From: Thermoanaerobaculia bacterium
GTDB taxonomy: Bacteria > Acidobacteriota > Thermoanaerobaculia > Multivoradales > J023
Reading direction: 5' to 3'
Assembly (NCBI GenBank): GCA_030431255.1
Contig: JAUIJL010000011.1
Span: forward strand, 124,001 to 188,000
Length of the DNA: 64,000 nucleotides
Under the pieces are notes generated by a model. It worked only from the letters and a program-made list of their open reading frames with translations. It was not told the origin of the DNA and searched no databases. The position numbers and the translations under genes are program-made. Below, one piece after another: positions 33,458-47,480 of the stretch (its first letter is position 1; each line of letters starts with the position of its first letter).

Positions 33458-34653
33458 TCAGAAAGTAATGTTGAAGATTTTCAAGGTGCTGAGATCCGTG
33501 TGCTCGGCCATGGCGTCGAGCATGACGATGCTCACTAAAATCGAGATTTCCTTGCCCGGGCAGCCGTGGGGTCCCTTGGACCAACTGAGGACTTTCTCGT
33601 ATTCCTCCGCTGGTCGATCCAGATCCATTTTGTCCGGATGGCTGAAGTGCTTGGGATCGCGGTTGGTGCAAATAAACGGATAGTCGATCTCGTCGCCCAC
33701 GGTGAGCTGAAGATCCTTACCGCTCACTCGAACCACCTCGTCGTCTTCGAGCATCCGATGCACGGAGGTCACCGTGGGCCAGAGGCGAACGGCTTCGTAA
33801 ATAAAATTGCGTTTGTGCTGATAGTCGAGATTTTTATAATCGATGTTGTTTTCTTGAATGAATTCCACCGCCTGGATGACCAAGGTGCCGATGCTGAACA
33901 TGGCGGCGAAGAGGGTCATGTCGATGGTGCCGACATCGATGTTGTATTTATTCTTGAGAATGTAATAGGCGTCCTTGCGCACGTGCTTGCGGGTGCCGAG
34001 CAGGCCGTTGACCCAGGGCAGATAGCCGTTGAACATGGACAGCTCGCCGAAACGACGGATGTAGTTTTGGGTCACCGACAGGCTGTCGTCGTAGCTGATG
34101 GTGGTGCCGGCCAGGATCCTGAAGAAGATGCGGGTCGCCGCGCTGCGCAGGGGATACATGTGGGTCATCTTGGGGTCCTTGCCCCATTCCTCCACGATCT
34201 CCTGGGTTTGCTCGCGCACCTTGTCGATATCCAAGGCGCGGACACTTTCGGTGAAGATGGTTTTGTCGATGCCTTCCCGGAAGTAGTCTCTCAAGGGCGG
34301 GTTCTGGTTCAGGCTGCCGGAATTCAAAGCGAAGGCGTTGTTGCTGGCGGAAACGATATTCACGCCCATGAAGTTGTTGCCCTTCATCAGCGGCTTGGGC
34401 AGGGCTTCGGCGGCGGAGTCGTAGTCGACCACATGACCGCCTTGCCGAAGATGAAGTTGCCCTTGAAGACCTTCCAATTGAGCATCATCGAGTTGTTTTG
34501 GATGTTGAAGAAAATCGACAGCCAATCGATGAAGGTGGTGATCTCGAGGATGATCGACCGGATGATGCCGAAGCGGGTTCGGTAGGCGTAGATCTTGAAG
34601 GGCTTCATGATCGCGAACACGACATAGAAGAGGGCATGGATCAGCTTGCGCAT
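33458..34653 (-). pseudogene. Cytochrome P450 (possible fatty-acid hydroperoxide-metabolising type), one apparent frameshift
   Basis: About 398 residues in two frames. The start at 34653 has AGGAGA eight bases upstream and opens MRKLIHALFYVVFAIMKPF. That frame runs to GKAVM near 34432, after which P450 sequence continues in the next frame (VVDYDSAAEALPKPLM). One missing base in ATGTGG would restore it, so either a real mutation, a sequencing error or programmed slippage. The haem loop is WSKGPHGCPGKEIS with the Cys codon at 33560-33562, and the ExxR motif is YEAVRLW. The I-helix segment (TLFAAMFSIGTLVIQ) lacks the usual A/G-G-x-D/E-T oxygen-activating pair, as in CYP74 allene-oxide synthases and hydroperoxide lyases. 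This and the adjacent lipoxygenase make an oxylipin role likely. It is visibly AT-richer than its neighbours. Confidence 0.8.
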
Positions 34654-34982
34654 CGGCGGCTATCTCCTGGTAGGGCGGCTTCAGACCTCGGTCCGACCCG
34701 CTGAACGGCACAAGCAGCCCCGACGAGCCCGTACGGCTCACCTAGGTGTCGCGTCGAAATGGCGATCCGGCTGACCGAAATGTCCGGCCGACCGAAGAAG
34801 TCGGAAATCACGAATTTTGTGTTTGGATCATAACACAGGAGAAAGCCCCCAGCTGGTTGAAGACGAGTTGGTCTCTGGCTCGATGCCGTGGGATAAGATT
34901 CGTGGGCTCAAAGATTTTGAATCGGCTGGGTGTCGAGGGAGTGAAGCTGAAGATGAGCCGTCTGGAACGGGTGGGTTGAGGC
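34654..34982. promoter_or_regulatory. Divergent region between the P450-lipoxygenase operon and the NACHT gene
   Basis: About 330 bases with no credible gene; a rightward 77-codon frame at 34746-34979 lacks a ribosome site. An inverted repeat TGTGTT-N8-AACACA at 34818-34837 is a candidate operator placed to affect either direction. The promoters of both flanking units should be here. Confidence 0.4.
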
Positions 34983-37900
34983 ATGGTCGAGGTTCGCATC
35001 GGCGATGGTGCCCGCTACGTGGCTGCGGGCGAAAACGTGGTGCAACAGCTGGTCTTTCGGCAAACCCATGCCCAGCGGCTGGGCCTTTGGCGCGGGTTGA
35101 CCCTACCCTTCTGGCAGCATCGGGCCTGGCGGCAATATTGCCTCGGTCTGGCGGAGACCTTACGTCGAGAGGAAGGGGTCGACCACGAGTTCACCGAGCT
35201 GCGAGCCCTCTTTTCGCCGGCGAATCTGCCGGTGGTGATCGAGAAAGTCGAGCGGCGCCTGGGTGAGATCTTGGATCAATATCGATTGCGCCGGGTCATT
35301 GTGCTGGGCGAGCCCGGCAGCGGCAAAACCACCTCCCTGCGACACCTGGCGATGCTGCAAGCGCGAGCGGCGGCTTCCTCCCGTCGGGCGCGGATCCCCA
35401 TGTTCGTATCTTTGGGCAGCTACACCGGTGAGGATCCGGTGGAATTCCTGCAGGACAAAGTGTTGGGCAGCGGTCGCTGGGAGCTGGCGGTTCTGCTGCC
35501 CAAGATGCTGGCCCAGGGGCGCATGATCCTCTTCCTCGACGCCCTGAACGAAATGCCCGGCACCAATTACGACGGCAATATCCGGCTTTTGCGGGGGTGG
35601 ATGGAGAGCTACTCCCAGAATCGATTCGTCTTCTCTTGTCGCACCGAGCATTACCGCGGCGAGCTGGGCATCCGTCAGGCCACGGTCCAGCGGCTGACCG
35701 ACGCCATGATCCGTGATTTTGCCGTGCGCTATCGGCCCGAAGACGGCCTCCAGCTTTTCGACACCTTGCGTCGGGACGATCTGCTGGAGATGGTGCGCAA
35801 TCCGTTGATTCTGTGGATGGTGCTCAAGACGGGGATCACGTCGTCGAATCGCGGTTTGTTGATCGAAGGATTCGTGAAGACCCTCTTGGTTCGAGAGGAG
35901 GCTAAGCGTGACGTCCACCGTGAGTATCGTCGCGCGCCGTCGGAGGAGCTGTCCCGGGCGTTGGAGCACCTGGCGTTCCAATCCCAATCCAGGTATCGGT
36001 CGACCATGTTGCCTCTGGCGGAGGCGAAGACCTTGCTGGACGAAGGTCGAGAGGGCTCGGGCGCGGCTTACGATTTTGTGGAGCAGGGTTGCGACGCCCT
36101 GCTCTTGAGGTTTACGGATCCCCGTCGGCGCAATCTCGCCTTCTGGCATCAGATCTTGCAGGAGTATTTGACCGCCGCCTATTTGGAGCGCCACTTGGTC
36201 CGGCTCGACGATGAGGAGCTGCGACGCTTGGCTTCGGACCCTTGGTGGTGGGAGACCTTGGTGCTGCTCAGCGGTTTGGTGGAAGACGGTCCGGCCTTGA
36301 TCGATCGATTGGTGGACGAAGAGTCGTCGGTGGAGGCGCTGCTCTTGGCGTCGGCGCTCGCGGCCAATACCCGGGACGAGTACTCAGATCTGTCCTCGGG
36401 TCTAATCGCTCGGCTGGTGGAGAAGCTGGAGCAGGGTCTCGACGAAGCCACTCGGGTGGCGGCCACGGAGCTGGCGAGCGTGGCCGGCAGCAGATTCCTC
36501 ATCGAGCTGGCAGATCGGGCGGTGGAAGGTGGGGATGCCTGCCTGATGGAAGCGGCGTCCCTGATGGTTCAGCTCGGAGACCGGGCGGCCATCGATTGGT
36601 TGTTGGATCAATTCGAAGAGCTCTTGGACAGACGTGTCGAATGGAGCTTCGATCTGTACAGCCTGCCAGAACGCGAGCGCGAGTCCGTCCGGTTGAAAGC
36701 TCTGCGAAGTCACTTTAGATCTGAGCTACCGAGGCTGGGCGGTCCCTTGGCCCAAGGCTTGTTGAGCCGCCTGGAAACGCGATCGGTGTTGGTGGGTGAG
36801 GCGGCGGATCTCTTGACCTCGGTGGGAGAGCCGGCGGTCCAAGTCCTGATCGACTACTTGCATTCCGACGCCCCCAAGCGGCTGCGGCTTCGAGCTCTGG
36901 AGTGGTTGGGCGATATCCGCGGCTCCGAGCTCGCCATCGACGGGGTCATGGACTACCTGGCCGACGAAGATTCCGACATCCATTGGGCGGCGGTCAAGGC
37001 GTTGGTGCGGCTGGGACAGGCGGAGCAGGAATGGGGAGTCGTGCTCAAGCTCACGGACAAAATGGGGTCCAAGAACTGGTTGGAACGTCTGGCGGTGGTG
37101 GAAGTCGCGGGCGGGCTGGGCTCCGACGCCGCCGGCGATTTTTTGGAGGCGGCAACTCGGGATCGGCACCCGGAGGTGCGCGCGGCCGCGTCGACCCATT
37201 TGCGCGCTCGAGAATCCGGGAGCCAAGGATTGCTGTTTTCCACCGGAACGAACCCGGGGGATTTGCAGGCGGGCATCGGCTTGGGCTTCGATTTCAGAAC
37301 GTTGTTGTCGGGCTCGACGGAGGACATCGCCCACGACGAAGCCGAGCCATTGGAAACCATGGGCCTATGGGACCACATCGAAGAGCTCCGGCTTCGTCTG
37401 GTCAGCTCGGTTTCGAGTTTCTTAGTGGCATTGGGCCTGGGGTTAGGGGTATTCGTGATGCGCTCGGAGCGGGTGACCGAGTGGGTGACCGGCGGGGCGC
37501 ATCATGGTCCCATGCGCTTGTGGTCCGTGGGGTTGCCCCTCGCTTGCACCTTGGCGGCGGGTATCGCCGTCTTGTGGTCGTTGCGCCAAGCCTTGCACTT
37601 CATCTTGCCGGCTCTCTACCTCAAAGAGCGAAAGGTCGCCCGCCGCCTCTATGTCGCCCTGATGATTCTTCTTCCGTCTACGACTTTTGCATACGGAGCT
37701 TTGAGCTATTGGGCGATTTCGTGGTTGGGAATCGAAGAGCCCCTGTTGGTGGTCTTCGAGCGCTTGCCCGTGGTGTTGCTGCTTTTGACCCTGGCGACGG
37801 GTCTGTTGCTCTTGGTGAGGGTAGTGGCTCGAAGGTTACCCCTGCTCTACGACCAAGTGCTCTTCTTCAGTGCTCTGATGTTGGGACCCCTAGTTTCTGT

Positions 37901-38843
37901 GCTCGGACCTAATCGCATACGGGCTTTGAAGCTTCGGGTGAGGCATCAAAGGTTGTTGGAGCTGTCGGGCTCGAACATCAAACCCATGGGCATGCTGCTG
38001 CTGATGGTCGTTCTCGGCGTCGCCCTCCCTCTTTATTCGATTCTGCCCTTCCTGGCATTGACCGCGTTGTGGCTGCTGACCGCGGCGCGGGCTTCGGAGC
38101 TTCCGGCGATCTTCCGAGAGCTCGGCGAGCTCGGCAAACCGCTGAGGTCCCTCGGTCCGACCTTGGATCGGGAAATTCAAGCGGAATGGATACACGATAC
38201 GATTCGATCGGCAACGACCGCGGCGACTGCGGAGAGCGGGGACACCGAAGAGACCTTGCCCACCATGAGCTTGTTGAATCATTTTCGCGAGGCTCGCCAG
38301 AGATTGATTCAAGCAACCCTCCTGCCGCCGGCGGTCGCATCCGGGCTTTGGGGTCTCGGGAAATTGGAGCTCCTACGTCTGGGTGAGCTTTCTTTTTGGG
38401 ATCTATATTTGTGGATCGCGTGGCCGACTCTGATGTTCCAAGCTTGGAGATTCGTCGCTCCGGGGCTGTACCGGAATGAGCGCCGGTTCGCTGGGACGGT
38501 ATTTCTTTTGATCGGCTCGTTGCCGGTTCTGATGGTGGGGCTGGGAGCGCTTCTTAGGCCTTGGTGGGTCGGCTCTGCGGTGGAATTGCCCAATGACGCT
38601 CATTTGAGAGTCGCGCTTTTGGCGTGGTTGAGCCTCGCGGCCTTCTTCTTGTTCTACCTCTCGTTCTTCTCCGTCTTTCGGCGTTTCTTCCGGATCGGGG
38701 CGTCGGGTTTGGTGTGGGTCGGCGGTGCGGCGGCGGTGCTCTGGCCGGTCCGGTTGGTGCCTTGGATGATCGTGGTGACGGTGGCTCTCATGGCGATCAT
38801 TCTGGCGCTGCTGTTGCGCAGGAAAGAACGCGGCTTTTTTTGA
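34983..38843 (+). CDS. NACHT NTPase with HEAT-like repeats and two tandem TatC-like membrane modules
   Basis: 1286 residues. Residues 2-23 are a short tag (IGDGARYVAAGENVVQ) shared with the gene at 38952. NACHT domain: Walker A GEPGSGKTT at 109-117, Walker B MILFLDALNEMP at 181-192, sensor FVFSCRTEHY. HEAT-like repeats span about 490-740. The C-terminal half is membrane-embedded and looks like TatC twice. Module 1 has H798-x2-E801-x-R803-x-RL, then F873-ILPALYLK-E882-R; module 2 has H1100-x2-E1103-x-R1105-x-RL, then W1155-R-F1157-VAPGLYRN-E1166-R. In E. coli TatC these positions (E15, R17, F94, E103) form the twin-arginine signal site, and the 9-residue F-to-E spacing is kept in both. Each module has about six helices. 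A STAND sensor with a membrane effector is the natural reading. The start ATG has only GAGG at short distance, so translation may be weak. Confidence 0.85.
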   Translation: MVEVRIGDGARYVAAGENVVQQLVFRQTHAQRLGLWRGLTLPFWQHRAWRQYCLGLAETLRREEGVDHEFTELRALFSPANLPVVIEKVERRLGEILDQYRLRRVIVLGEPGSGKTTSLRHLAMLQARAAASSRRARIPMFVSLGSYTGEDPVEFLQDKVLGSGRWELAVLLPKMLAQGRMILFLDALNEMPGTNYDGNIRLLRGWMESYSQNRFVFSCRTEHYRGELGIRQATVQRLTDAMIRDFAVRYRPEDGLQLFDTLRRDDLLEMVRNPLILWMVLKTGITSSNRGLLIEGFVKTLLVREEAKRDVHREYRRAPSEELSRALEHLAFQSQSRYRSTMLPLAEAKTLLDEGREGSGAAYDFVEQGCDALLLRFTDPRRRNLAFWHQILQEYLTAAYLERHLVRLDDEELRRLASDPWWWETLVLLSGLVEDGPALIDRLVDEESSVEALLLASALAANTRDEYSDLSSGLIARLVEKLEQGLDEATRVAATELASVAGSRFLIELADRAVEGGDACLMEAASLMVQLGDRAAIDWLLDQFEELLDRRVEWSFDLYSLPERERESVRLKALRSHFRSELPRLGGPLAQGLLSRLETRSVLVGEAADLLTSVGEPAVQVLIDYLHSDAPKRLRLRALEWLGDIRGSELAIDGVMDYLADEDSDIHWAAVKALVRLGQAEQEWGVVLKLTDKMGSKNWLERLAVVEVAGGLGSDAAGDFLEAATRDRHPEVRAAASTHLRARESGSQGLLFSTGTNPGDLQAGIGLGFDFRTLLSGSTEDIAHDEAEPLETMGLWDHIEELRLRLVSSVSSFLVALGLGLGVFVMRSERVTEWVTGGAHHGPMRLWSVGLPLACTLAAGIAVLWSLRQALHFILPALYLKERKVARRLYVALMILLPSTTFAYGALSYWAISWLGIEEPLLVVFERLPVVLLLLTLATGLLLLVRVVARRLPLLYDQVLFFSALMLGPLVSVLGPNRIRALKLRVRHQRLLELSGSNIKPMGMLLLMVVLGVALPLYSILPFLALTALWLLTAARASELPAIFRELGELGKPLRSLGPTLDREIQAEWIHDTIRSATTAATAESGDTEETLPTMSLLNHFREARQRLIQATLLPPAVASGLWGLGKLELLRLGELSFWDLYLWIAWPTLMFQAWRFVAPGLYRNERRFAGTVFLLIGSLPVLMVGLGALLRPWWVGSAVELPNDAHLRVALLAWLSLAAFFLFYLSFFSVFRRFFRIGASGLVWVGGAAAVLWPVRLVPWMIVVTVALMAIILALLLRRKERGFF

Positions 38844-38883: not shown

Positions 38884-38951
38884 CTCCAAGATTCGAGCTC
38901 GCGGACGATCGCAGGGTCGGCGGGAATTCATGATCACGGGTGATGCAAACC

Positions 38952-39296
38952 ATGAGCGATTCCAAGAAGTCCCCTGAAGCTTCCGCCGGTGACTCCGTCT
39001 CGGTCACCATCGGTGACCATGCGCGACAAGTGGCCGCCGGCAAGAACGTGGTGCAGACCCTCGATCAACGGGCCGACTCCGCATCCGGAGCCTCGGCCCC
39101 CAGCCCCGCGAAGCACGGATCCAAAATCGCCGTGGGTTTCATCCTGGCGGCGGTGTTGGCGTTGGCGACCAATCTCCTGGCCTCGTACCTGGAGCAGGAG
39201 CTGCAAGTGCTGTCGACGGAGCTTCGGTGGTCGGTGGTGGTCGGGGTCTTCCTCGGCTCGCTGGCCCTGAGCATCTGGATGGCTGGGCGTGACTAG
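38952..39296 (+). CDS. Small two-helix membrane protein sharing the NACHT protein's N-terminal tag
   Basis: 114 residues from the ATG at 38952 (an in-frame ATG at 38943 and a GTG at 38940 are alternatives; no strong ribosome site). Residues 16-37 contain IGDHARQVAAGKNVVQTL, which matches residues 2-23 of the NACHT protein at 16 of 22 positions. A short Ala/Ser/Pro linker follows, then two membrane helices (IAVGFILAAVLALATNLLASYL and WSVVVGVFLGSLALSIWMAG) with a short loop. The tag would lie in the cytoplasm if both ends do. It does not resemble TatA/TatB, which have one helix followed by an amphipathic helix. It is probably the partner or effector of the NACHT protein. Confidence 0.75.
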   Translation: MSDSKKSPEASAGDSVSVTIGDHARQVAAGKNVVQTLDQRADSASGASAPSPAKHGSKIAVGFILAAVLALATNLLASYLEQELQVLSTELRWSVVVGVFLGSLALSIWMAGRD

Positions 39297-39551: not shown

Positions 39552-42545
39552 ATGTTCAAAAGTGTGCGATTCATTGTCTGCGTGGCCGGGCTTGCCTTGG
39601 CCGGCACTGCTCAGCTGCGGGCCGACAAACCGGGTTGCGAATACCAGCCCGTCGACGTTGAAAAATACGGCGGGCAGCTGCTGCGTCTACCGCCGGAGAT
39701 CCGATCCGTCGATCGCGAGCTCGACGCCCGGCTGACCCTCGCTTACAGCATGCAGCCGATCGCCGGTTGTGAAACCCACCTGAGACTCTACGATGGTCTC
39801 TTGACCGGTCCGACCCTAGAGGTCTCTCCCGGCGATACCCTCAACGTGGACGTCGTCAACAATCTGCCGCCGGATCCTCCTCCGCCTTCGGACAACATCA
39901 ACGATCCCCACGGCTTCAATCGCACCAATTTGCACACCCACGGCCTACACGTCTCGCCGGCGGGCAACGCCGACAACGTGTTGTTGGAGGTGCAGCCGGG
40001 TCGGCGCTTCCAAAATGAGATCAAGATCCCCCGAGATCATCCCCCAGGCACGTTTTGGTACCACCCTCACGTCCACGGCTCGACCGCCATCCAAGTGGGC
40101 AGCGGCATGGCCGGCGCGCTGATCGTTCGCGGTGGCATCGATTACCTGCCGCAAATTGAGCGCATGACCGAGCAGATCTTCGTGTTCCAACAAATTCCTT
40201 ACGATAAAAACGGCGAGGTCGAGGACTTCGACGAGTCCTTTGGCCCCGGGGTGTGGGACACCTCCCACCGTCAAACGACCATCAACGGTCAAATTTTTCC
40301 GGTGATTCACATGCGGCCGGGCGAGATCCAACGGTGGCGCATGATCCACGGCGGAGTTCGCGAATCCTTGGAGCTGGTTCTGGACGGCCATCAGCTCAAC
40401 GAAATCGCCGTCGACGGCTTGGTGACGGGACGCATCGACAGCTGGAACCGCCTGGAGCTCCAACCGGGTTATCGCAGCGATGTGTTGATCCGAGCTCGGG
40501 CGTTGCCGGCGGGCCGACAGCGGGCCGAATTCATTCTCTACGACGGCGAAACCCCGGCATCCCGATCCTTGTTGGCGGTGGACGAAGACCGTCAGGCCCT
40601 GGCGAAAGTCGTCGTCGAGGGGCCGCCGATGTCCATGCAAATGCCCAGTGAGGCGGCGCTTCAGCGATTCGTGCCGTTCGCGCCGATCGAGCGAATCGAT
40701 GGTTATCAAGAGGCGGTCTTCAACATCAGCGGCGGCCAGTTCACGGTCAACGGTCGAGAGTTCAGCCCCGACCATCGGCGGGTCTTGGAGCTCGGCAAGG
40801 CCGAGGAATGGACGCTGAATTCTCTGCGGGTCAACCACCCCTTTCACATCCACGTGAATCCTTTCGAGCACGAGCGCATCGGCCCCGACGGCCGACCGCA
40901 GCGGGTGTGGCGTGACACCTTGTTGGTGCGTCAGGACACACCGATCAAGATCCGAACCCGCTACACCAAATACATCGGCACCTTCGTGCTGCATTGCCAC
41001 ATTCTCGACCACGAGGATCAGGGCATGATGGAGTTGGTGGAAGTGCGTCTGCCGGGCTCGCCTCCGGACGGTCGGCACGCTCATATGAGCCATGAGCACG
41101 TGGCCATGGCCGATGAGGCCGGGCACGGGCACGGGAGCTCCGCGCGAATGGCGGCAGGCGACGCCGAGGAGTCGGAGGAGGCCTACGAGCCGCCCTCGCG
41201 GGTGCGCAAAAGCATCGACGACCTGGAGCCCGAGGAGTTGGAGAATTACCTCCATGCGGTGCGTCGTCTGAAGGAAATTTCCGACCAGGACCCCACCAGC
41301 AAGGATGGTTACGATTACTTCGCCGCCCTCCACAACAGCGGGTCCGTGGGACCCTGCGAGCATGCGCGGGATTCCTTCCTGCCGTGGCATCGAGCCCATT
41401 TGGTCGAATACGAAAACGCGCTGCGTCGGTCGGATCCGCCGCGCACCTCGGAGGTGACGGTGCCCTATTGGGATTGGACCCGGATTCCTTCAGGATCCCG
41501 CTATCCGACGATCATCGAGGACCCGAATTCCGTGCTCTACCACCGGGGACGACGGACCACGGAGATCTGCCGACCGGGTCAGACGAACGGTTGCGAGCCC
41601 TTGCCGTTCCCGTGGACAGTGATCGACGAAACCCTGGACGACGCACCGGGCTGGCAGGGGGAGGGTCCCTACTTCTTCGGCGGTGAGTCGAATGAGGATC
41701 CCGTCTGTCGTGACCGACAAGATCAGGCCTACGGCGCGCTGGAATCCCCCTCCCACAACGACATGCACAGCCGCTACATCGGTGGCGCCATGCGCAGCCC
41801 GACGACCGCCGCGGAGGATCCTATTTTCTGGAGCTTCCATGCCTTCATCGACTTGCTGTGGGACCACTGGCAGGCCCGATCCACCAGCTCGAAGGTGGAT
41901 AGCTGCCTGGATTGCCAATTGTGTGGTCTGTTCAAGGATCCCCAAAACAACGTCGATCCGTGGACGGTGAAAGACACCGTCAGCACGGCGGCCCTGGACT
42001 ACCGCTACGAGTTCACGCCGGACGAGGTCGCACCCGCGGCGGCGCGCGTGGCCGCCTTCCGTGCCGTGCCGTTCGACAGCCACCCGGCGGCGGGCATGGT
42101 GAGCGCTCTGGCACCGCAAGCGGCCGGCAGCCAAGATCTGCTGGTGCCGACACGGGTCGATCAAACGGTGAGCCTGCGCTTGAGCTCGGTGCCCCGTCCG
42201 GCCGACGTCAGCTATCGCGGTGAGGTCTACCTGCATCCCGCCACCGAGAGCTTCCGGCCCGGGGATCCGGAATTCCGCAAGCTCTATCTCTTCGACCTCT
42301 ATTCCATTTGGCGCGGGCACGGCGACCACGCCCGCCCGGACGTCGATGTGGTGATCGATCTCACCAAAGAAGTGGAGGCCCTTTCGGTCTTCCACGCCGG
42401 TGAGCTGTGGAAAGTGTCCGTGGCGGTGGTGCCGTCGGAGGAGCCGACGGCAGACGGCGAGCGAGCAGCCGCTCCGGCCCCGGACGCCTTGATGTTCGAC
42501 GCCGCCCGCCTACAGGGTCTGGGCCAACCATCCGAAAACCGATAG
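39552..42545 (+). CDS. Secreted multicopper oxidase-tyrosinase fusion
   Basis: 997 residues. The ATG at 39552 has AGGAGGAG upstream and a Sec signal peptide (FIVCVAGLALAGTAQLRA). The N-terminal half is a laccase-type multicopper oxidase with all four copper motifs: HTHG (128-131), HPHVHG (171-176), HPFHIH (429-434), and HCHILDHEDQGM (481-492), with Met492 as the axial type-1 copper residue. A His-rich linker (around 510-530) leads to a tyrosinase domain: copper A near His594, His604 and His613 (FLPWHRAH), copper B at His735, His739 (SHNDMH) and His763 (FWSFHAFIDLLW). A C-terminal beta domain resembles the tyrosinase tail. Both halves oxidise phenols, one by four-electron O2 reduction and one via a di-copper peroxo site. 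Confidence 0.92.
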   Translation: MFKSVRFIVCVAGLALAGTAQLRADKPGCEYQPVDVEKYGGQLLRLPPEIRSVDRELDARLTLAYSMQPIAGCETHLRLYDGLLTGPTLEVSPGDTLNVDVVNNLPPDPPPPSDNINDPHGFNRTNLHTHGLHVSPAGNADNVLLEVQPGRRFQNEIKIPRDHPPGTFWYHPHVHGSTAIQVGSGMAGALIVRGGIDYLPQIERMTEQIFVFQQIPYDKNGEVEDFDESFGPGVWDTSHRQTTINGQIFPVIHMRPGEIQRWRMIHGGVRESLELVLDGHQLNEIAVDGLVTGRIDSWNRLELQPGYRSDVLIRARALPAGRQRAEFILYDGETPASRSLLAVDEDRQALAKVVVEGPPMSMQMPSEAALQRFVPFAPIERIDGYQEAVFNISGGQFTVNGREFSPDHRRVLELGKAEEWTLNSLRVNHPFHIHVNPFEHERIGPDGRPQRVWRDTLLVRQDTPIKIRTRYTKYIGTFVLHCHILDHEDQGMMELVEVRLPGSPPDGRHAHMSHEHVAMADEAGHGHGSSARMAAGDAEESEEAYEPPSRVRKSIDDLEPEELENYLHAVRRLKEISDQDPTSKDGYDYFAALHNSGSVGPCEHARDSFLPWHRAHLVEYENALRRSDPPRTSEVTVPYWDWTRIPSGSRYPTIIEDPNSVLYHRGRRTTEICRPGQTNGCEPLPFPWTVIDETLDDAPGWQGEGPYFFGGESNEDPVCRDRQDQAYGALESPSHNDMHSRYIGGAMRSPTTAAEDPIFWSFHAFIDLLWDHWQARSTSSKVDSCLDCQLCGLFKDPQNNVDPWTVKDTVSTAALDYRYEFTPDEVAPAAARVAAFRAVPFDSHPAAGMVSALAPQAAGSQDLLVPTRVDQTVSLRLSSVPRPADVSYRGEVYLHPATESFRPGDPEFRKLYLFDLYSIWRGHGDHARPDVDVVIDLTKEVEALSVFHAGELWKVSVAVVPSEEPTADGERAAAPAPDALMFDAARLQGLGQPSENR

Positions 42546-42557
42546 TCGGAGCGAACC

Positions 42558-43103
42558 ATGCCCAACGAAAATGGAAACCATCGCGAGCCGGTTTGGGAGC
42601 TGCATATTCGTCCCATGTTCCGCCTGATCGACCACGAGCATATGTCGTGGCTCGACCTGTGGGATTACGACACGGTTTGGGCCAAGCGGGAGGCCATCCT
42701 GGGCCGGGTGTCCGACAAATCGGCGCCCATGCCCAGCTATCCCACCGGCGGGCCCTGGCCCGACGAATGGGTGTCGATCTTTCGCCGGTGGATCGACAAC
42801 GGCGGCCACAAGCTCGACCTCGGAAGCCCGGATTCAGCGGGTTATGAGGTCAAGAAAACCTTCGACGGCATCCGGATCAGCGCTTGGGTGCAGGTGCCCG
42901 GGGAGGGGTATCGGGCTTGGCTCGATATCGAGTCCGTCGGCGCCACCACCCGTCACTACAGCTTGGTGGTGGAAGCACCCCTCGACGATCCGGGGGGGCC
43001 GTCCACCGAGCTCGAGGTGCGCGACGAGTTCAAGGCCGGCTCGGTGGAGAAGCTGATCGTGGTCGACGCCGACGGACGCCACGAGCTCGACGTACCGACC
43101 TAG
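42558..43103 (+). CDS. Hypothetical protein with a FRxxDxxxM-type N-terminal motif, downstream of the oxidase fusion
   Basis: 181 residues, starting 12 bases after the fusion gene, so co-transcribed. Residues 15-80 (IRPMFRLIDHEHMSW, then LDLWDYDTVWAKREAILGRV and WVSIFRRWIDNG) match a small domain often found beside oxidoreductases and c-type cytochrome-like proteins but without a haem motif here. The C-terminal 100 residues are beta-rich (GIRISAWVQVPG, TELEVRDEF). There is no signal peptide and no metal-binding cluster. Function unknown; genomic position suggests a helper of the copper oxidase. Confidence 0.7.
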   Translation: MPNENGNHREPVWELHIRPMFRLIDHEHMSWLDLWDYDTVWAKREAILGRVSDKSAPMPSYPTGGPWPDEWVSIFRRWIDNGGHKLDLGSPDSAGYEVKKTFDGIRISAWVQVPGEGYRAWLDIESVGATTRHYSLVVEAPLDDPGGPSTELEVRDEFKAGSVEKLIVVDADGRHELDVPT

Positions 43104-43141: not shown

Positions 43142-43168
43142 GCGGCCCGGGAGCAGATCCCGGGCCGC
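43142..43168. terminator. Bidirectional terminator between convergent genes
   Basis: A perfect 10-bp inverted repeat (GCGGCCCGGG / CCCGGGCCGC) with a 7-base loop stands between the stop at 43103 and the stop at 43201. A short T-rich stretch follows on the rightward side. Confidence 0.7.
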
Positions 43169-43200: not shown

Positions 43201-44040
43201 TCAGGGCGTTCCCACGGACGAGAGGTCGGAGCCCGGTCTTGCTTGGGGCAGGAGCCGTCGCAGACCCATGCGGCCCCGGGCGATCAGAATCCGGCCCAGG
43301 TTGCCGGGGAATCGCAGGCGCCAATCCAAGGGTCTCGGCGGAGCGAGGCGCTCGCTGATCATCAGAATCGTGACGGCGGCCATGGCGACGAGGTGTCCCG
43401 CCGACATCACCATCGGCAGCATCATCAGCGCCCAGCACGACCCCACACACCACCACCCGTGGTCGAGGCCGAATCGGAGGGCGTCCATATCCGCCCTCCG
43501 GCCGAACGCCGCCAGCTCACGATGATTGTGGTTGCGGTTCAGGCAGCGCTGCTTGGCGGGCGAGCATTGCCAGATGAAGGCGATCAGGCCGATCCCCAGG
43601 GCCGGCAAGAGCCCCGGAGCCGGCATCGCCGATGCGGCTCGACCGATCCACAGGATCGCCGCCGTCAGCACCATGCCGACCGGCATCCAAATCGCCGCAT
43701 AACCCACCACGAAGAGCAGGATCGACCGGGCGCGCCGGCGTTTGAAGCTGCGGTCGAGAATGTGGTGGATCGGCGAGATCAGCGTCGGCAACATCATCGC
43801 CACCAACATCAGGGCCCAACCCGCCGCCCAGTCCAGGGCGCCAGTGACGGCCGGGTGGTTTGCGGAATGGGCCTGCATGTCCGCGTGCAGGTGCCCGTCG
43901 ACCACGGCCGACGGGGCCGCTGCGCCGTGGCCGGCGTGGCCCGTCATCAGCTGGGGGGCGGCCAACATGAGGACCCACGCCGTGGCGCTCAACAGCAGCA
44001 CGGCGTAGCTGGTCCTTCTGCGTGCCCGAGCGTTTTCCAC
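43201..44040 (-). CDS. DUF2182 polytopic membrane protein (predicted metal-binding)
   Basis: 279 residues with a His-rich segment near the N-terminus (MTGHAGHG, DGHLHADMQAHS) and about six membrane helices. The DUF2182 hallmarks are AGWALMLVAMMLPT, CLNRNHNHR and GWWCVGSCWALMMLPMVMSAGH. Members are predicted metal-binding membrane proteins, often named copper chaperones on the basis of neighbours. It starts 3 bases after the tyrosinase gene, so the two are an operon, which supports a copper-supply role for the tyrosinase. No experimental function can be read from the sequence. Confidence 0.85.
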   Translation of the reverse strand: MENARARRRTSYAVLLLSATAWVLMLAAPQLMTGHAGHGAAAPSAVVDGHLHADMQAHSANHPAVTGALDWAAGWALMLVAMMLPTLISPIHHILDRSFKRRRARSILLFVVGYAAIWMPVGMVLTAAILWIGRAASAMPAPGLLPALGIGLIAFIWQCSPAKQRCLNRNHNHRELAAFGRRADMDALRFGLDHGWWCVGSCWALMMLPMVMSAGHLVAMAAVTILMISERLAPPRPLDWRLRFPGNLGRILIARGRMGLRRLLPQARPGSDLSSVGTP

Positions 44041-44043
44041 CGC

Positions 44044-45561
44044 TTATTGCCCTTCGCGATAGACGCTGACCCGGCCGATGGTGAATTCGGCGTCGTCCGG
44101 CACGGCTTTGCTGGGCATCACCTTGACGTCCAAGGAGTCGGCATCCAGGCTCTCGTCGAGATGCAGGTTGTCGATGATGCCGGTGATGTCGAGCTCGAAG
44201 GTCAGACCTTCGCCGCCGTGCTGTCCATCCTTCTGGCTGGCTCGTCGGAGCCCGAAGGTCGCCACCGTGCCCGCCGCCTGCTCGTTGACGTAAACCGTCA
44301 GCTTGTGGGCGTCGCGGTTTCCGCGGACGTTTTCGAGTCGGAGATAAACCAAGTCCGGAAGACTTTTCCGAGATGCCATCCGCAGGCTGTCGGACACTTT
44401 TCTGCGCACGTTGGTGTCGAGCCTTACGGTGGCCCGAGCCCCCGAGCTCTTGATCTCCAAAGCACCGTCGTGGGCGCCGACCAGCTCTGAATCGTCTTGA
44501 TTTGCCATGGCATCTCCTGGGGCGGTGTCGGTCGGAGTGGCTCCGAGTCGGCTCAGCCTTTGGGCCAGCACGCGCTCCGCCGGTTGAGCCTGGACGGTCG
44601 ACAGATCGTCGTACGTATAGTCTAGCTGGCTGAGGCTGTTGACCTGGGACGGCGTGAACACCCAAGTGGTGCCGTCGGGCATCGGCATGACGAATTCCCG
44701 CTGCCCCGAGGCGGCCGGTCCGTCGAGCCAGGCGTCATCGGTGGGATTGCTGTTGCCTTTGGCGTTCCAGGCGGCCCACATGCGGTCGATATTGCAATGG
44801 TGGAGGTAGAAGATCGGATCCAGGGCAGCCAGACCCGGATCGGACATCAGGCCCCAGATCACGTTGTTGTCACCGCCGACGTCCACATGCACTTGATTGT
44901 GCGGGTTGCTCTCCAGATTGCCGGAACGACCTCCCCCATGCCAGAAGCCCGTTTGCGGACCGCCGTAGCCCGGACGAGGCGTGACGGGGCTGCTGCCGGT
45001 GTAGATGTCGTTGTTTTGGCAAGCTTGGGAGACCGGCGGGATGGGGATGAAGATATTGCCGTCGCCGTTGGGGCCGAAACGGGCGGTGACGAAGAGCGGA
45101 TTGGCTTCGCCGCCCGGTAGCTCTTCCTGGGCGAACGCGGGCGGCATGTCGAATTGGTCGTCGGGCCCGAAGTAATTCCAGTAGGGCAGGGCCCAACAGT
45201 CGGGGCCTCCGAGCCTCACCACCGCCGCGCGGACCTGTGCCTCCAGGGCCAGCAGATATCCGCGATGCCAGGGCGGGAAATACCAGCTTTGGTGCTGACA
45301 TTGATTCCAGAACTGATCTTTGACGCCCTGGGACGGCACCGGTGAGGTGGGCACTTGCGGGGGCCCCGGAATAGAGCCCCAACCCGGATAGTTGGCCACG
45401 CCGACGTACTCGCCGTGGATGGCCGCGAAGAACCACCAGCTATTCGGGTCGTTCAACTCTCGGGATTGCATCTCGCCGACGCCTCGGGCGTACCAGAGAA
45501 GATTTTCGTTGTCGAAAGTACCGCCTTGATTCCAAGCGTTGCTTCTCGTGTAAGTGGCCAT
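44044..45561 (-). CDS. Tyrosinase / polyphenol oxidase without signal peptide
   Basis: 505 residues; AAAGGAG lies six bases before the ATG at 45561. Copper A: His49 (AAIHGEYVG), His90 (CQHQSWYFPPWHRG) and His99. Copper B: His221 and His225 (PHNQVH) and His254/255 (DPIFYLHHCNIDRMW). The linker and C-terminal 170 residues form a separate beta domain (VYLRLENVRGNRDAH, LTVYVNEQAAGTV) of the type that caps plant polyphenol oxidases. Without a signal peptide it should be cytoplasmic or exported by another route. It o-hydroxylates and oxidises phenols such as tyrosine/DOPA. The gene is paired with the DUF2182 gene and divergent from the decarboxylase at 46008. Confidence 0.95.
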   Translation of the reverse strand: MATYTRSNAWNQGGTFDNENLLWYARGVGEMQSRELNDPNSWWFFAAIHGEYVGVANYPGWGSIPGPPQVPTSPVPSQGVKDQFWNQCQHQSWYFPPWHRGYLLALEAQVRAAVVRLGGPDCWALPYWNYFGPDDQFDMPPAFAQEELPGGEANPLFVTARFGPNGDGNIFIPIPPVSQACQNNDIYTGSSPVTPRPGYGGPQTGFWHGGGRSGNLESNPHNQVHVDVGGDNNVIWGLMSDPGLAALDPIFYLHHCNIDRMWAAWNAKGNSNPTDDAWLDGPAASGQREFVMPMPDGTTWVFTPSQVNSLSQLDYTYDDLSTVQAQPAERVLAQRLSRLGATPTDTAPGDAMANQDDSELVGAHDGALEIKSSGARATVRLDTNVRRKVSDSLRMASRKSLPDLVYLRLENVRGNRDAHKLTVYVNEQAAGTVATFGLRRASQKDGQHGGEGLTFELDITGIIDNLHLDESLDADSLDVKVMPSKAVPDDAEFTIGRVSVYREGQ

Positions 45562-46007: not shown

Positions 46008-47480
46008 ATGCAAACCCGGTCTTCGTTCCCCGCATCTTCCCTTTCCACCAACTTTGAATCAGATCTCGAGGTCTCGGGTGACGAGCTGCGCGGCCTGATC
46101 GAGCAAACCACCGCCAGATTGGTGGAATTCCTCGACGCCTTGCCCGAGCGACCCATGGACGGCACCGCGAACGGTGTCGAGCTTGCGCGGGCTTGCTCGG
46201 AGCCGTTGCCGGAGGCCGGGGCTCCCTTCGAGCAGCTTTTGGGGCTGCTCTTCGACCGCGCCATACCGTGCACTTTCAACACCGCGAGCGGCGGCTACCT
46301 GGCGTACATCCCGGGGGGTGGTCTGCCCCAATCGGGCATCGCGGCGCTCATCGCCAATGTGGTCAATAGCTACATCACGGTGTGGGTGGCGTCCCCGGCC
46401 TTGGTGCAGCTGGAAAGCAACGTCATCTCGTGGTTTTGCTCCATGATCGGTCTGCCCGAGGGCTCGGGCGGTTACCTTTCCAGCGGCGGCTCCATGGCCA
46501 ATTTCAGCGCCCTGGCCACCGCCCGCTGCGAGCTTCTGCCGGAGGATTTCCTGCACGGCACCCTCTACGTGTCGGACCAGGTGCACCATTCCATGGTCAA
46601 AGCGGCCAAGCTGGCGGGCTTTCCGCCGCGCAACGTGCGCTCCATTCCCACCGACGACCGATTCCGCATGTCCCTCGACGCGTTGGTCCACAGCATCGAG
46701 CAGGATCGGTCGGCCGGTCTGCAACCCTTCTTCATCGTCGCCAACGCCGGCTCGACCAACACGGGGGCGGTGGATCCGTTGGCGGATCTGGCGGACCTGG
46801 CGGAGCGGGAAAAGCTCTGGTTACACGTCGACGCGGCTTACGGCGGTTTCTTTCAGCTCACGGAACGCGGGCGCCGAGCCATGAACGGCATGGAACGGGC
46901 CGACTCCATCACCTTGGATCCCCATAAGGGTCTCTTCTTGCCCTACGGCACGGGCTGTTTGCTGGTGAAGGATCAAGCCGCGCTGAAGCGGACCCACGGC
47001 ACCCAAGCGGATTACATGCCCGACCACGCCGACCCTGAATTCGTGGACTTCAGCGAGATATCTCCTGAGCTGTCGCGGGACATCCGGGGACTGCGGGTAT
47101 GGCTACCCCTCAAGATGTACGGGGTGGACGTCTTCCGCCGTCAGCTGGACGAAAAGTTGGACCTGGCCCATTGGGCCGCCGACCGGCTGCGCGCCCTACC
47201 CGATGTGGAGATCGTGGCCGAGCCCCAGCTGTCGTTGGTGGTCTTCCGCTACGCCCCGGAAGGTTTCGACAACCAAGAGCTCAACGCGCTGAATCGTCGG
47301 CTGATGGAGCTGGTGAATCAGCGCCAGCGGGTGATGCTGACCCCGACCCGGGTGTCGGGAGATCGATTCGTGTTGCGCATCTGTGTGTTGTCGTTCCGCA
47401 CTCATCTGCGACATATGGAGATGGCGCTGGAAGATCTTCAAGCGGGCATCCAGGAGCTTCAGCTCAGATCTGATTCCTGA
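46008..47480 (+). CDS. Aromatic-L-amino-acid-decarboxylase-like PLP enzyme (group II)
   Basis: 490 residues. The PLP lysine lies in LDPHKGLFLPYGTG; the Asp that pairs with the pyridine nitrogen is in HVDAAYGGFF; the substrate loop is HHSMVKAAKLAG. This order matches the group II decarboxylases of DOPA, tyrosine, tryptophan and glutamate. Aromatic-type features such as FNTASGGYLAYIPGGG fit DOPA/tyrosine decarboxylase better than glutamate decarboxylase, but substrate cannot be fixed by eye. Divergent from the tyrosinase, it could decarboxylate DOPA to dopamine. Its 3' end overlaps the convergent DUF523 gene by 17 bases. No strong ribosome site at the ATG. Confidence 0.85.
   Translation: MQTRSSFPASSLSTNFESDLEVSGDELRGLIEQTTARLVEFLDALPERPMDGTANGVELARACSEPLPEAGAPFEQLLGLLFDRAIPCTFNTASGGYLAYIPGGGLPQSGIAALIANVVNSYITVWVASPALVQLESNVISWFCSMIGLPEGSGGYLSSGGSMANFSALATARCELLPEDFLHGTLYVSDQVHHSMVKAAKLAGFPPRNVRSIPTDDRFRMSLDALVHSIEQDRSAGLQPFFIVANAGSTNTGAVDPLADLADLAEREKLWLHVDAAYGGFFQLTERGRRAMNGMERADSITLDPHKGLFLPYGTGCLLVKDQAALKRTHGTQADYMPDHADPEFVDFSEISPELSRDIRGLRVWLPLKMYGVDVFRRQLDEKLDLAHWAADRLRALPDVEIVAEPQLSLVVFRYAPEGFDNQELNALNRRLMELVNQRQRVMLTPTRVSGDRFVLRICVLSFRTHLRHMEMALEDLQAGIQELQLRSDS

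What the first reader, a model, noticed from the sequence alone, without database searches (positions are those of the whole stretch)
39552..42545. Multicopper oxidase and tyrosinase fused in one secreted protein
One polypeptide carries all four laccase copper motifs and, after a His-rich linker, both tyrosinase copper sites. Type-1/2/3 copper and a binuclear tyrosinase centre in the same chain would give up to six coppers and two routes to oxidise phenols, possibly channelling quinones from one site to the other. The linker may itself bind copper.
Basis: seen in the sequence. Interest (0 to 1): 0.75.

Follow-up and report, generated by a model that had tools for sequence, protein, structure and literature searches.

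The report
Laccase-like oxidase fused to a tyrosinase
A bacterium carries one long, probably exported protein that joins two different copper enzymes for oxidising phenols, which some other bacteria make from two neighbouring genes; it looks like a natural fusion of a recurrent gene pair, and no second example was found in the collections searched.

Summary
39552-42545 (+) is one open 997-codon gene: a probably exported three-domain multicopper oxidase (MCO), a 49-residue His-rich linker, then a tyrosinase domain. All laccase-type ligands, six tyrosinase histidines and a CxH cysteine are present.

No other open frame carries both domains among 187 loci held, apart from four copies of the window's own gene. 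But the halves occur side by side elsewhere: in 7 of 22 genomes found with a tyrosinase motif blind to MCOs, an MCO gene lies just upstream on the same strand (in 3 of the 7 with no room for a gene between), the order of the fusion. The MCO half groups with three such paired MCOs; the tyrosinase half with tyrosinases from Alphaproteobacteria. A small gene behind the fusion (42558-43103) follows this tyrosinase clade in 5 of 6 members seen, and is an N-terminal domain in 6 of the 7 MCO-paired tyrosinases.

So this is probably a lineage-specific fusion of a recurrent gene pair. Two phenol-oxidising sites in one chain is well supported by sequence; quinone channelling is untested. The linker's His-rich start resembles tails of many unfused MCOs. 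An assembly or base error cannot be excluded without reads. New variant of a known kind.

The parts
39552..42545 (+). MCO-tyrosinase fusion gene, 997 aa
   Evidence: open frame; Pfam domains; only gene with both domains among 187 loci
39552..39626 (+). N-terminal Sec-type signal sequence, residues 1 to about 25
   Evidence: read by eye; no program run
39672..41051 (+). three-domain multicopper oxidase, residues 41-500; ligands H128 H130 H171 H173 H429 H432 H434 H481 C482 H483 H487 M492
41052..41198 (+). linker, residues 501-549, six His at 509-527, residues 508-548 with pLDDT under 50
   Evidence: compare MCO tails
41148..41150 (+). in-frame ATG (M533) with GGGAG 10 bases upstream: a possible internal start, not tested
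   Evidence: read by eye
41199..42041 (+). tyrosinase (type-3 copper) core, about residues 550-830; ligands H594 H604 H613 H735 H739 H763, CxH cysteine C602
   Evidence: PF00264 over residues 585-776
42042..42542 (+). C-terminal part of the tyrosinase half, residues 831-997, strands predicted at low confidence; possible lid over the active site (inference)
42558..43103 (+). 181-aa companion protein ('WELHIRPMF'), no Pfam match; its N-terminal part is an N-terminal domain of many tyrosinases and resembles the end of AsqI
43142..43168 (.). 11-pair GC-rich inverted repeat between the two convergent gene pairs, terminator-like (the region has no more such sites than shuffles)
43201..44040 (-). PpoB2/DUF2182-type copper chaperone (neighbour)
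   Evidence: PF09948, 2.2e-33
44044..45561 (-). second tyrosinase with DUF7868 domain, directly upstream of the chaperone gene (neighbour)
   Evidence: PF00264 2.5e-31, PF25271 5.1e-47

Best explanation
An exported bifunctional phenol oxidase made by an in-frame fusion of two genes that are neighbours in a number of bacteria: a laccase-like MCO gene and the tyrosinase gene downstream of it. SHOWN: one reading frame, complete ligand sets for four MCO coppers and two tyrosinase coppers, no stop and no signal peptide between the halves, and recurrence of the unfused pair, mostly in the same order. INFERRED: the protein leaves the cytoplasm by the MCO's Sec signal; the MCO half takes one-electron steps from phenols, diphenols or semiquinones; the tyrosinase half oxidises mono- or diphenols to o-quinones; together, at fixed 1:1 ratio, they drive oxidation and coupling of phenols outside the cytoplasm. 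Copper for the tyrosinase half may come from the neighbouring PpoB2-type chaperone. Direct channelling between the sites is possible but not needed.
For: Continuous frame; Pfam and residue-level evidence for both halves; MCO fold by Foldseek. Mesorhizobium AR10 has MCO, a 133-aa gene, tyrosinase with its own signal peptide (by eye) and the 181-aa gene's homologue in a row; the fusion's tyrosinase half starts at the same place (RVRKSIDD/RIRKNIDA) without one. MCO just upstream of tyrosinase, same strand, in 7 of 22 pattern-scan genomes, and in R. leguminosarum Vaf10 and R. lusitanum 629. The 133-aa protein recurs near such genes in ten genomes, Mesorhizobium included. MCO half groups with three MCOs of such pairs, 95/88. 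Third-position GC stays coding-like in the linker (0.83 against 0.77 and 0.78).
Against: Only one fused example, so no conservation supports a function of the fusion as such. The halves' nearest relatives come from different genomes: MCO nearest Fulvivirga/Ramlibacter, tyrosinase nearest Alphaproteobacteria, so they may have been brought together from two sources. In the Fulvivirga, Ramlibacter and Armatimonadetes pairs, and in the nearest tyrosinase of all (G505, near a contig end), the tyrosinase starts without a visible signal peptide, so in those the two enzymes may sit in different compartments. 15 of the 22 genomes show no MCO beside the tyrosinase, nor does G519 or G428's C25 locus. In 4 of the 7 pairs a further gene or open frame lies between. 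Two pairs have the reverse order: R. leguminosarum 9B and G025. The window lacks the 133-aa gene. Marinomonas PpoB2 is reported not to serve the laccase PpoA. No activity or copper data. The C-terminal part could keep the tyrosinase site closed.
Confidence: 0.6

Rival explanations
1. One half serves the other: the MCO half with its His-rich tail works mainly as a copper oxidase or copper store that loads and protects the tyrosinase site, an in-cis copper caddie. The catalyst that matters is the tyrosinase.
For: Six His right after the type-1 copper strand. Short tails with two or three His in many unfused MCOs, including that of Mesorhizobium near a tyrosinase. A bacterial tyrosinase is reported to depend on a helper protein for copper: PpoB2 in Marinomonas (passages of PMC2855505).
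Against: A PpoB2-type chaperone is already next door. The MCO keeps the complete laccase-type ligand set. Fulvivirga's MCO, the nearest to this one, has no His tail.
Confidence: 0.15
2. The tyrosinase half is not an active oxidase in the mature protein: latent under its C-terminal domain, or used for something other than phenol oxidation, as in the hemocyanin-like zinc enzyme AsqI.
For: A C-terminal part with predicted strands is present (low-confidence model). The half matches hemocyanin units as well as tyrosinases in the PDB. The companion gene's N-terminal domain resembles the end of AsqI (residues 660-747, E 1.5e-11), and AsqI is a hemocyanin-like zinc enzyme (PMC6053404, abstract and passages).
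Against: AsqI has lost metal site B (His346, Leu350, Tyr387), while here all six His are present and invariant with relatives. Single hemocyanin units score lower (best shown 53.8 bits) than oxidases such as 8b74 (67.8) or 4j6t (62.1, two stretches); the top rank of whole hemocyanin chains sums many units.
Confidence: 0.15
3. Artefact: an assembly or base error has removed a stop between two genes.
For: The fusion occurs in one genome only, not in the others of its genus or class that were searched. Unfused pairs exist, and in R. leguminosarum Vaf10 the two genes are even in the same frame, split by two stops. No reads were available. An in-frame ATG with a GGGAG ahead of it lies at 41148, and the nearest tyrosinase (G505) also has no visible signal peptide.
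Against: The linker has no non-coding stretch, the frame runs on for 1062 codons, and the tyrosinase half lacks the signal peptide that the Mesorhizobium, G519 and G428 relatives have by eye, so a lost stop alone would not explain the layout if the partner was a secreted one.
Confidence: 0.1

Closest known systems
Three-domain bacterial laccases (Thermus thermophilus laccase, PDB 2xu9/6w2k/9cpm)
   Same: the MCO half aligns over residues 47-498 (E 3e-46 to 5e-45); all copper ligands kept; best Foldseek matches
   Different: ends at the MCO; no tyrosinase domain
Bacterial tyrosinases, polyphenol oxidases and hemocyanin units (PF00264)
   Same: six His, PF00264 above cut-off, sequence matches to all three kinds; CxH cysteine as in hemocyanins and fungal/plant enzymes (recalled)
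   Different: carried C-terminal to an MCO; does not reach the cut-off of NCBIfam's MelC2 model (79.9 of 450 bits)
Unfused MCO + tyrosinase gene pairs (Mesorhizobium AR10, Fulvivirga marina, Ramlibacter WS9, Armatimonadetes MAG, Pseudomonas gingeri, Rhodobacteraceae HTCC2150, Pleurocapsa MAG)
   Same: same two enzyme families, same order; companion domain in cis in 6 of the 7 scan genomes, in trans in Mesorhizobium
   Different: two proteins; in three pairs checked by eye the tyrosinase has no visible signal peptide; a 133-aa gene absent from the window often lies nearby
Marinomonas mediterranea PpoA / PpoB1-PpoB2
   Same: one organism with a laccase-type and a tyrosinase-type oxidase and a COG5486 copper chaperone (passages of PMC2855505); window has tyrosinase + PpoB2 next to the fusion
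   Different: there the laccase and the tyrosinase are separate proteins
AsqI (Aspergillus nidulans cyclopenase)
   Same: hemocyanin-like protein whose end resembles the companion domain
   Different: metal site B lost, zinc enzyme; that it holds no MCO is recalled, not tested

Membership tests
Multicopper oxidase, three-domain laccase type | cupredoxin domains Cu-oxidase_3, Cu-oxidase and Cu-oxidase_2 | tested here: met
   all three Pfam models above cut-off; the 50 Foldseek matches listed are all MCOs
Multicopper oxidase, three-domain laccase type | ten His, one Cys, axial Met of the type 1/2/3 sites | tested here: met
   positions; aligned with Thermus laccase (which residue binds which copper is recalled)
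Multicopper oxidase, three-domain laccase type | oxidises phenols/ABTS, binds four coppers | not testable with these tools
   needs purified protein
CueO (NCBIfam NF008205) | score above the curated cut-off of 525 bits | tested here: not met
   103.1 bits
Tyrosinase / type-3 copper protein | PF00264 above cut-off with six copper-binding His | tested here: met
   101.4 bits against 22.6; H594 H604 H613 H735 H739 H763
Tyrosinase / type-3 copper protein | monophenolase and diphenolase activity | not testable with these tools
   sequence alone does not tell tyrosinase from catechol oxidase or hemocyanin
MelC2 tyrosinase (NCBIfam NF047834) | score above the curated cut-off of 450 bits | tested here: not met
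   79.9 bits
AsqI-type zinc hemocyanin-like enzymes | metal site B lost | tested here: not met
   all three site-B His present here; AsqI site B is His346/Leu350/Tyr387
PpoB1-PpoB2 pair (neighbouring genes, minus strand) | tyrosinase gene followed by a COG5486/DUF2182 chaperone gene | tested here: met
   44044-45561 then 43201-44040, minus strand; chaperone function not tested

The most novel reading that the evidence does not exclude
The MCO and this tyrosinase form a phenol-oxidising cassette spread over several phyla, with the companion domain and often the 133-aa protein as further, so far unnamed parts. The window's bacterium has welded the two oxidases into a six-copper enzyme in which diphenols or quinones made at the tyrosinase site are passed to the laccase site.
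Probability: 0.22. Interest if true: 0.72.

Novelty: new variant of a known kind. Interest (0 to 1): 0.5.

Why it matters
Laccases and tyrosinases are usually studied as alternative solutions to phenol oxidation (recalled). A natural fusion, with the unfused pair recurring mostly in the same order in several phyla, suggests that some bacteria use them together. That can be tested directly with one polypeptide and its separate halves. It also points to a companion domain, present in cis or in trans, as a likely further part. For phenol, melanin or humic chemistry, and for enzyme engineering, a ready-made six-copper oxidase would be a useful starting point.

Tried and rejected
AsqI-like zinc enzyme: rejected as the likeliest reading because all six His are kept. 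Second fusion in the same genome (C41, 1051 aa): rejected; it has a tyrosinase but no MCO match. Long tyrosinase ORFs in the phylum (up to 1222 aa): no MCO domain in the same ORF in any locus held; one, L082, carries VWA instead. Fusion in R. leguminosarum Vaf10, suggested by one tblastn piece spanning both domains: rejected, two in-frame stops separate the genes. A purpose-made copper linker: weakened, since 17 of 29 readable unfused MCOs have two or more His in the first 60 residues after the last MCO strand. Of those 17 one (L129) has them inside a further fused domain and several are near-duplicates; within the window's own MCO clade only Ramlibacter's has a His tail and Fulvivirga's has none. 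Three of the 33 rows (L014, L017, L021) could not be read, and one row is the window.

Weak or failed steps: genome-contig scan with A1 used poor patterns and confirmed nothing. The AlphaFold model of the fusion is of low to medium confidence (mean pLDDT 57), so no inter-site distance was taken from it, and the 50 Foldseek matches listed are MCOs, none a tyrosinase. The model of the companion protein is poor (55) and was not fold-searched. phmmer of the companion protein alone against the PDB gave nothing convincing (E 0.23); only the profile A4 found AsqI. Rfam: no match. Promoter scan: none found; the terminator count equals that of shuffles (5 against mean 5.0), so the hairpin at 43142 is only suggestive. 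First alignment for modelling was misaligned and redone with trimmed rows. One search scored at most four first-look candidates of each genome and at most eleven, so weak matches may be missing. Rows dropped before counts: the MCO tree took hits with E under 1e-20 and over 330 query residues and skipped duplicate loci by a typed list (33 rows); 14 of 65 tyrosinase rows were left out of the tyrosinase tree by a typed list of long, distant or duplicate rows. Further loci with both genes seen by the profile but not examined closely: G428 C86 and G417 (weak MCO matches), L164 and L185.
Full report
Observation. The open frame 39552-42545 on the plus strand encodes 997 residues with no internal stop. 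Pfam finds Cu-oxidase_3, Cu-oxidase and Cu-oxidase_2, then Tyrosinase over residues 585-776, all above the curated cut-offs. NCBIfam gives only scores far below its equivalog cut-offs (CueO 103 of 525 bits, MelC2 80 of 450), so neither half is a close member of a named subfamily. The MCO half aligns over residues 47-498 with Thermus thermophilus laccase (E 2.9e-46), with the copper-binding residues in register, and a model of the fusion has MCOs as all of its 50 listed PDB matches (no tyrosinase is among them). The tyrosinase half matches tyrosinases, polyphenol oxidases and hemocyanin units (whole hemocyanin chains rank first because many units add up). Ligand positions are H128, H130, H171, H173, H429, H432, H434, H481, C482, H483, H487, M492 and H594, C602, H604, H613, H735, H739, H763 (which residue binds which copper is recalled knowledge). 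In a 10-row alignment of tyrosinases the six His and the Cys never vary.

Setting. The window is G000:C32:124001-188000 of a 10.2-Mb, 54-contig genome. A same-class genome, G428, has a tyrosinase contig of 51,152 bases, the length of the contig of pattern-scan locus L106, titled 'Thermoanaerobaculia bacterium'. The organism is therefore probably an acidobacterium of that class (inference). Behind the fusion lies a 181-aa gene with no Pfam match (42558-43103). Facing it on the minus strand are a second tyrosinase with DUF7868 and a PpoB2/DUF2182 copper chaperone. In Marinomonas PpoB2 is in an operon with tyrosinase PpoB1 and is involved in copper transfer to it, but not to the laccase PpoA (passages of PMC2855505). 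R. leguminosarum 9B has a similar arrangement: a tyrosinase and an MCO gene on one strand, facing a DUF2182 gene and a tyrosinase fragment on the other.

Is the layout known? I searched P0001 in 59 genomes of relatives, own one included, PF00264 in 396 genomes of the phylum, in the 148 genomes served for the class and in 395 genomes of the phylum of Fulvivirga. The tyrosinase profile A1 was searched in the class and in 11 and 385 genomes around the nearest alphaproteobacterium. The full protein was searched in 72,556 plasmid records, where no single place reaches 80% of the query; the best, Mesorhizobium, prints as 80% over two separate genes, and I saw the best 30 of 902 records. Samples overlap. 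In all 187 loci that I held, 159 have a tyrosinase and 63 an MCO by profiles built here; only four open frames have both, and all four are the window's own gene (L002, L005, L006, L059). Loci are often cut at about 1.5 kb of flank, so an MCO further away could be missed, but a fused MCO should show at least in part. This is not a search of UniProt. Eight literature searches listed no title or abstract start describing a natural MCO-tyrosinase fusion; of 219 papers and 29 only 20 were listed. I read only passages of PMC2855505, PMC9454253 and PMC6053404.

Where the halves come from. A degenerate pattern for the tyrosinase motif PWHRA[HY]xxx[FY]EN, which says nothing about MCOs, found 22 loci in genome contigs. 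In 7 of the 22 genomes an MCO match lies just upstream of the tyrosinase on the same strand (G497, G498, G499, G502, G507, G508, G517); two of the seven are Pseudomonas gingeri strains. The gaps run from about 36 to 1106 bases. In three (G497, G499, G517) there is no room for another gene; in Fulvivirga (G508) a DJ-1/PfpI-type ORF lies between, in the two P. gingeri the 133-aa gene's homologue, and in Pleurocapsa (G498) a 346-codon open frame. By my arithmetic about 0.02 such neighbours would be expected if a handful of MCO genes lay at random. The other 15 show no such neighbour; one of them (G505) has its tyrosinase at a contig end. Mesorhizobium AR10 has MCO, a 133-aa gene, tyrosinase and the companion gene in a row. 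R. leguminosarum Vaf10 and R. lusitanum 629 have MCO then tyrosinase. Against this order stand R. leguminosarum 9B and G025, where the tyrosinase comes first. G519 and G428's C25 locus have tyrosinase and companion gene with no MCO within the stretch read.

The 133-aa protein of Mesorhizobium has matches in the loci of nine further genomes (G020, G1288, Fulvivirga, Armatimonadetes, two P. gingeri, R. leguminosarum 9B and Vaf10, R. lusitanum); all these loci had been fetched for a tyrosinase or MCO, so the association is suggestive, not unbiased. The window has no match to it (best E 0.31), and Pfam does not know it.

Trees. In the MCO tree the window groups with Fulvivirga, Ramlibacter and an Armatimonadetes MAG at 95/88, all three from such pairs. 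In the tyrosinase tree it groups with an alphaproteobacterial MAG and Mesorhizobium, and then G428 (98 and 96 by SH-aLRT in a quick tree). The two halves thus have nearest relatives in different genomes; a fusion after partner exchange, or thin sampling, would both explain it.

Why one gene and not two. The Mesorhizobium, G519 and G428 tyrosinases start with a signal peptide (by eye) and reach the conserved RxRKxxxxL start within a few residues. In the window the same start follows the linker without any such peptide. The nearest relative of all, in G505, also has no visible signal peptide, which weakens this argument. Third-position GC in the linker is 0.83, against 0.77 and 0.78 in the halves. 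One caution is an in-frame ATG at 41148 with GGGAG ten bases ahead, which could start a separate, non-exported tyrosinase. Reads were not available.

The linker. Residues 501-549 follow the last MCO strand; six His lie at 509-527. In 29 unfused MCOs with a readable end and motif, 17 have at least two His in the 60 residues after the last strand, many as short ends such as ASHH or HRH. The rule is not universal: Fulvivirga's MCO, the nearest, has none, and L129's lie inside a further domain. So the His-rich part may be an MCO tail kept in the fusion. In the model residues 508-548 are under pLDDT 50, consistent with a flexible link, but the whole model is only of medium to low confidence.

The companion gene. 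Homologues of the 181-aa protein follow the tyrosinase directly in Mesorhizobium, G428, G505 and G519 as in the window: 5 of 6 members of this clade that I saw, the window included; the sixth, G651 (L161), shows none in its short locus. In 17 of the 22 pattern-scan loci the N-terminal part of the tyrosinase matches this protein, and in one more, L093, it is the separate gene; of the seven MCO-paired tyrosinases, six have the domain and G497's shows none. A profile of it matches the end of the fungal hemocyanin-like enzyme AsqI, residues 660-747, E 1.5e-11. A domain that goes with tyrosinase-fold proteins in cis and in trans is probably a folding, copper-loading or gating partner (inference). 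It has no visible signal peptide, which fits action before export, or means that it acts elsewhere.

How it most likely works. Shown: the frame, the ligands, the neighbours. Inferred: export by the MCO's signal sequence; a four-copper laccase site and a two-copper tyrosinase site held together at fixed ratio; oxidation and coupling of phenols outside the cytoplasm. Two facts limit the idea of an old partnership in one compartment: the tyrosinases paired with MCOs in Fulvivirga, Ramlibacter and Armatimonadetes have no visible signal peptide, while their MCOs appear to have one (by eye); and one fusion carries no evidence of selection for fusion. I put the simple bifunctional oxidase at 0.6, a mainly copper-serving MCO half at 0.15, a silent or differently used tyrosinase half at 0.15 and an artefact at 0.1.

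Novelty. Both halves are members of well-known families; the combination and its companion are a new variant. Interest 0.5: it would surprise copper-enzyme specialists moderately, and is easy to test.

Noticed in passing
window 34983-38843 (+): One 1286-aa ORF with a NACHT NTPase, HEAT repeats and two TatC-like (PF00902) membrane stretches; the next small ORF, 38940-39296, shares a start like IGDxARxVAAGxNVVQxL with it (by eye).
   Followed up: no
L055 6641-7042 (+) and loci L056, L057, L058, L068, L095, L127, L129, L131, L163: A 133-aa protein family unknown to Pfam recurs beside these MCO and tyrosinase genes in ten genomes, sometimes between them; absent from the window.
   Followed up: partly
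L129 5649-8117 (-), Armatimonadetes MAG: The MCO of this pair is itself fused to an AhpC-TSA/thioredoxin-like domain at its C-terminus: the MCO end seems a place where other redox domains are joined.
   Followed up: partly
L076 4609-6282 (+), Acaryochloris plasmid: A ferritin-like (PF12902) protein carries a domain like the 181-aa companion at its end, close to a tyrosinase gene.
   Followed up: no
L081 4521-7673 (+), G000 contig 41: A third tyrosinase of the same genome, 1051 aa, with long non-tyrosinase extensions and no MCO match.
   Followed up: partly
L082 4703-7903 (+), G428: Tyrosinase fused to a von Willebrand A domain, next to a gene with weak MCO similarity.
   Followed up: no
window 46008-47480 (+): PLP-dependent decarboxylase next to the tyrosinases (best NCBIfam match, diaminobutyrate decarboxylase, is far below its cut-off); an amine or aromatic amino acid substrate would fit but is untested.
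   Followed up: no
window 33458-34741 (-): Cytochrome P450-like C-terminal part (PF00067, 3e-7) in a 427-aa ORF whose first part looks non-coding or frameshifted by eye.
   Followed up: no
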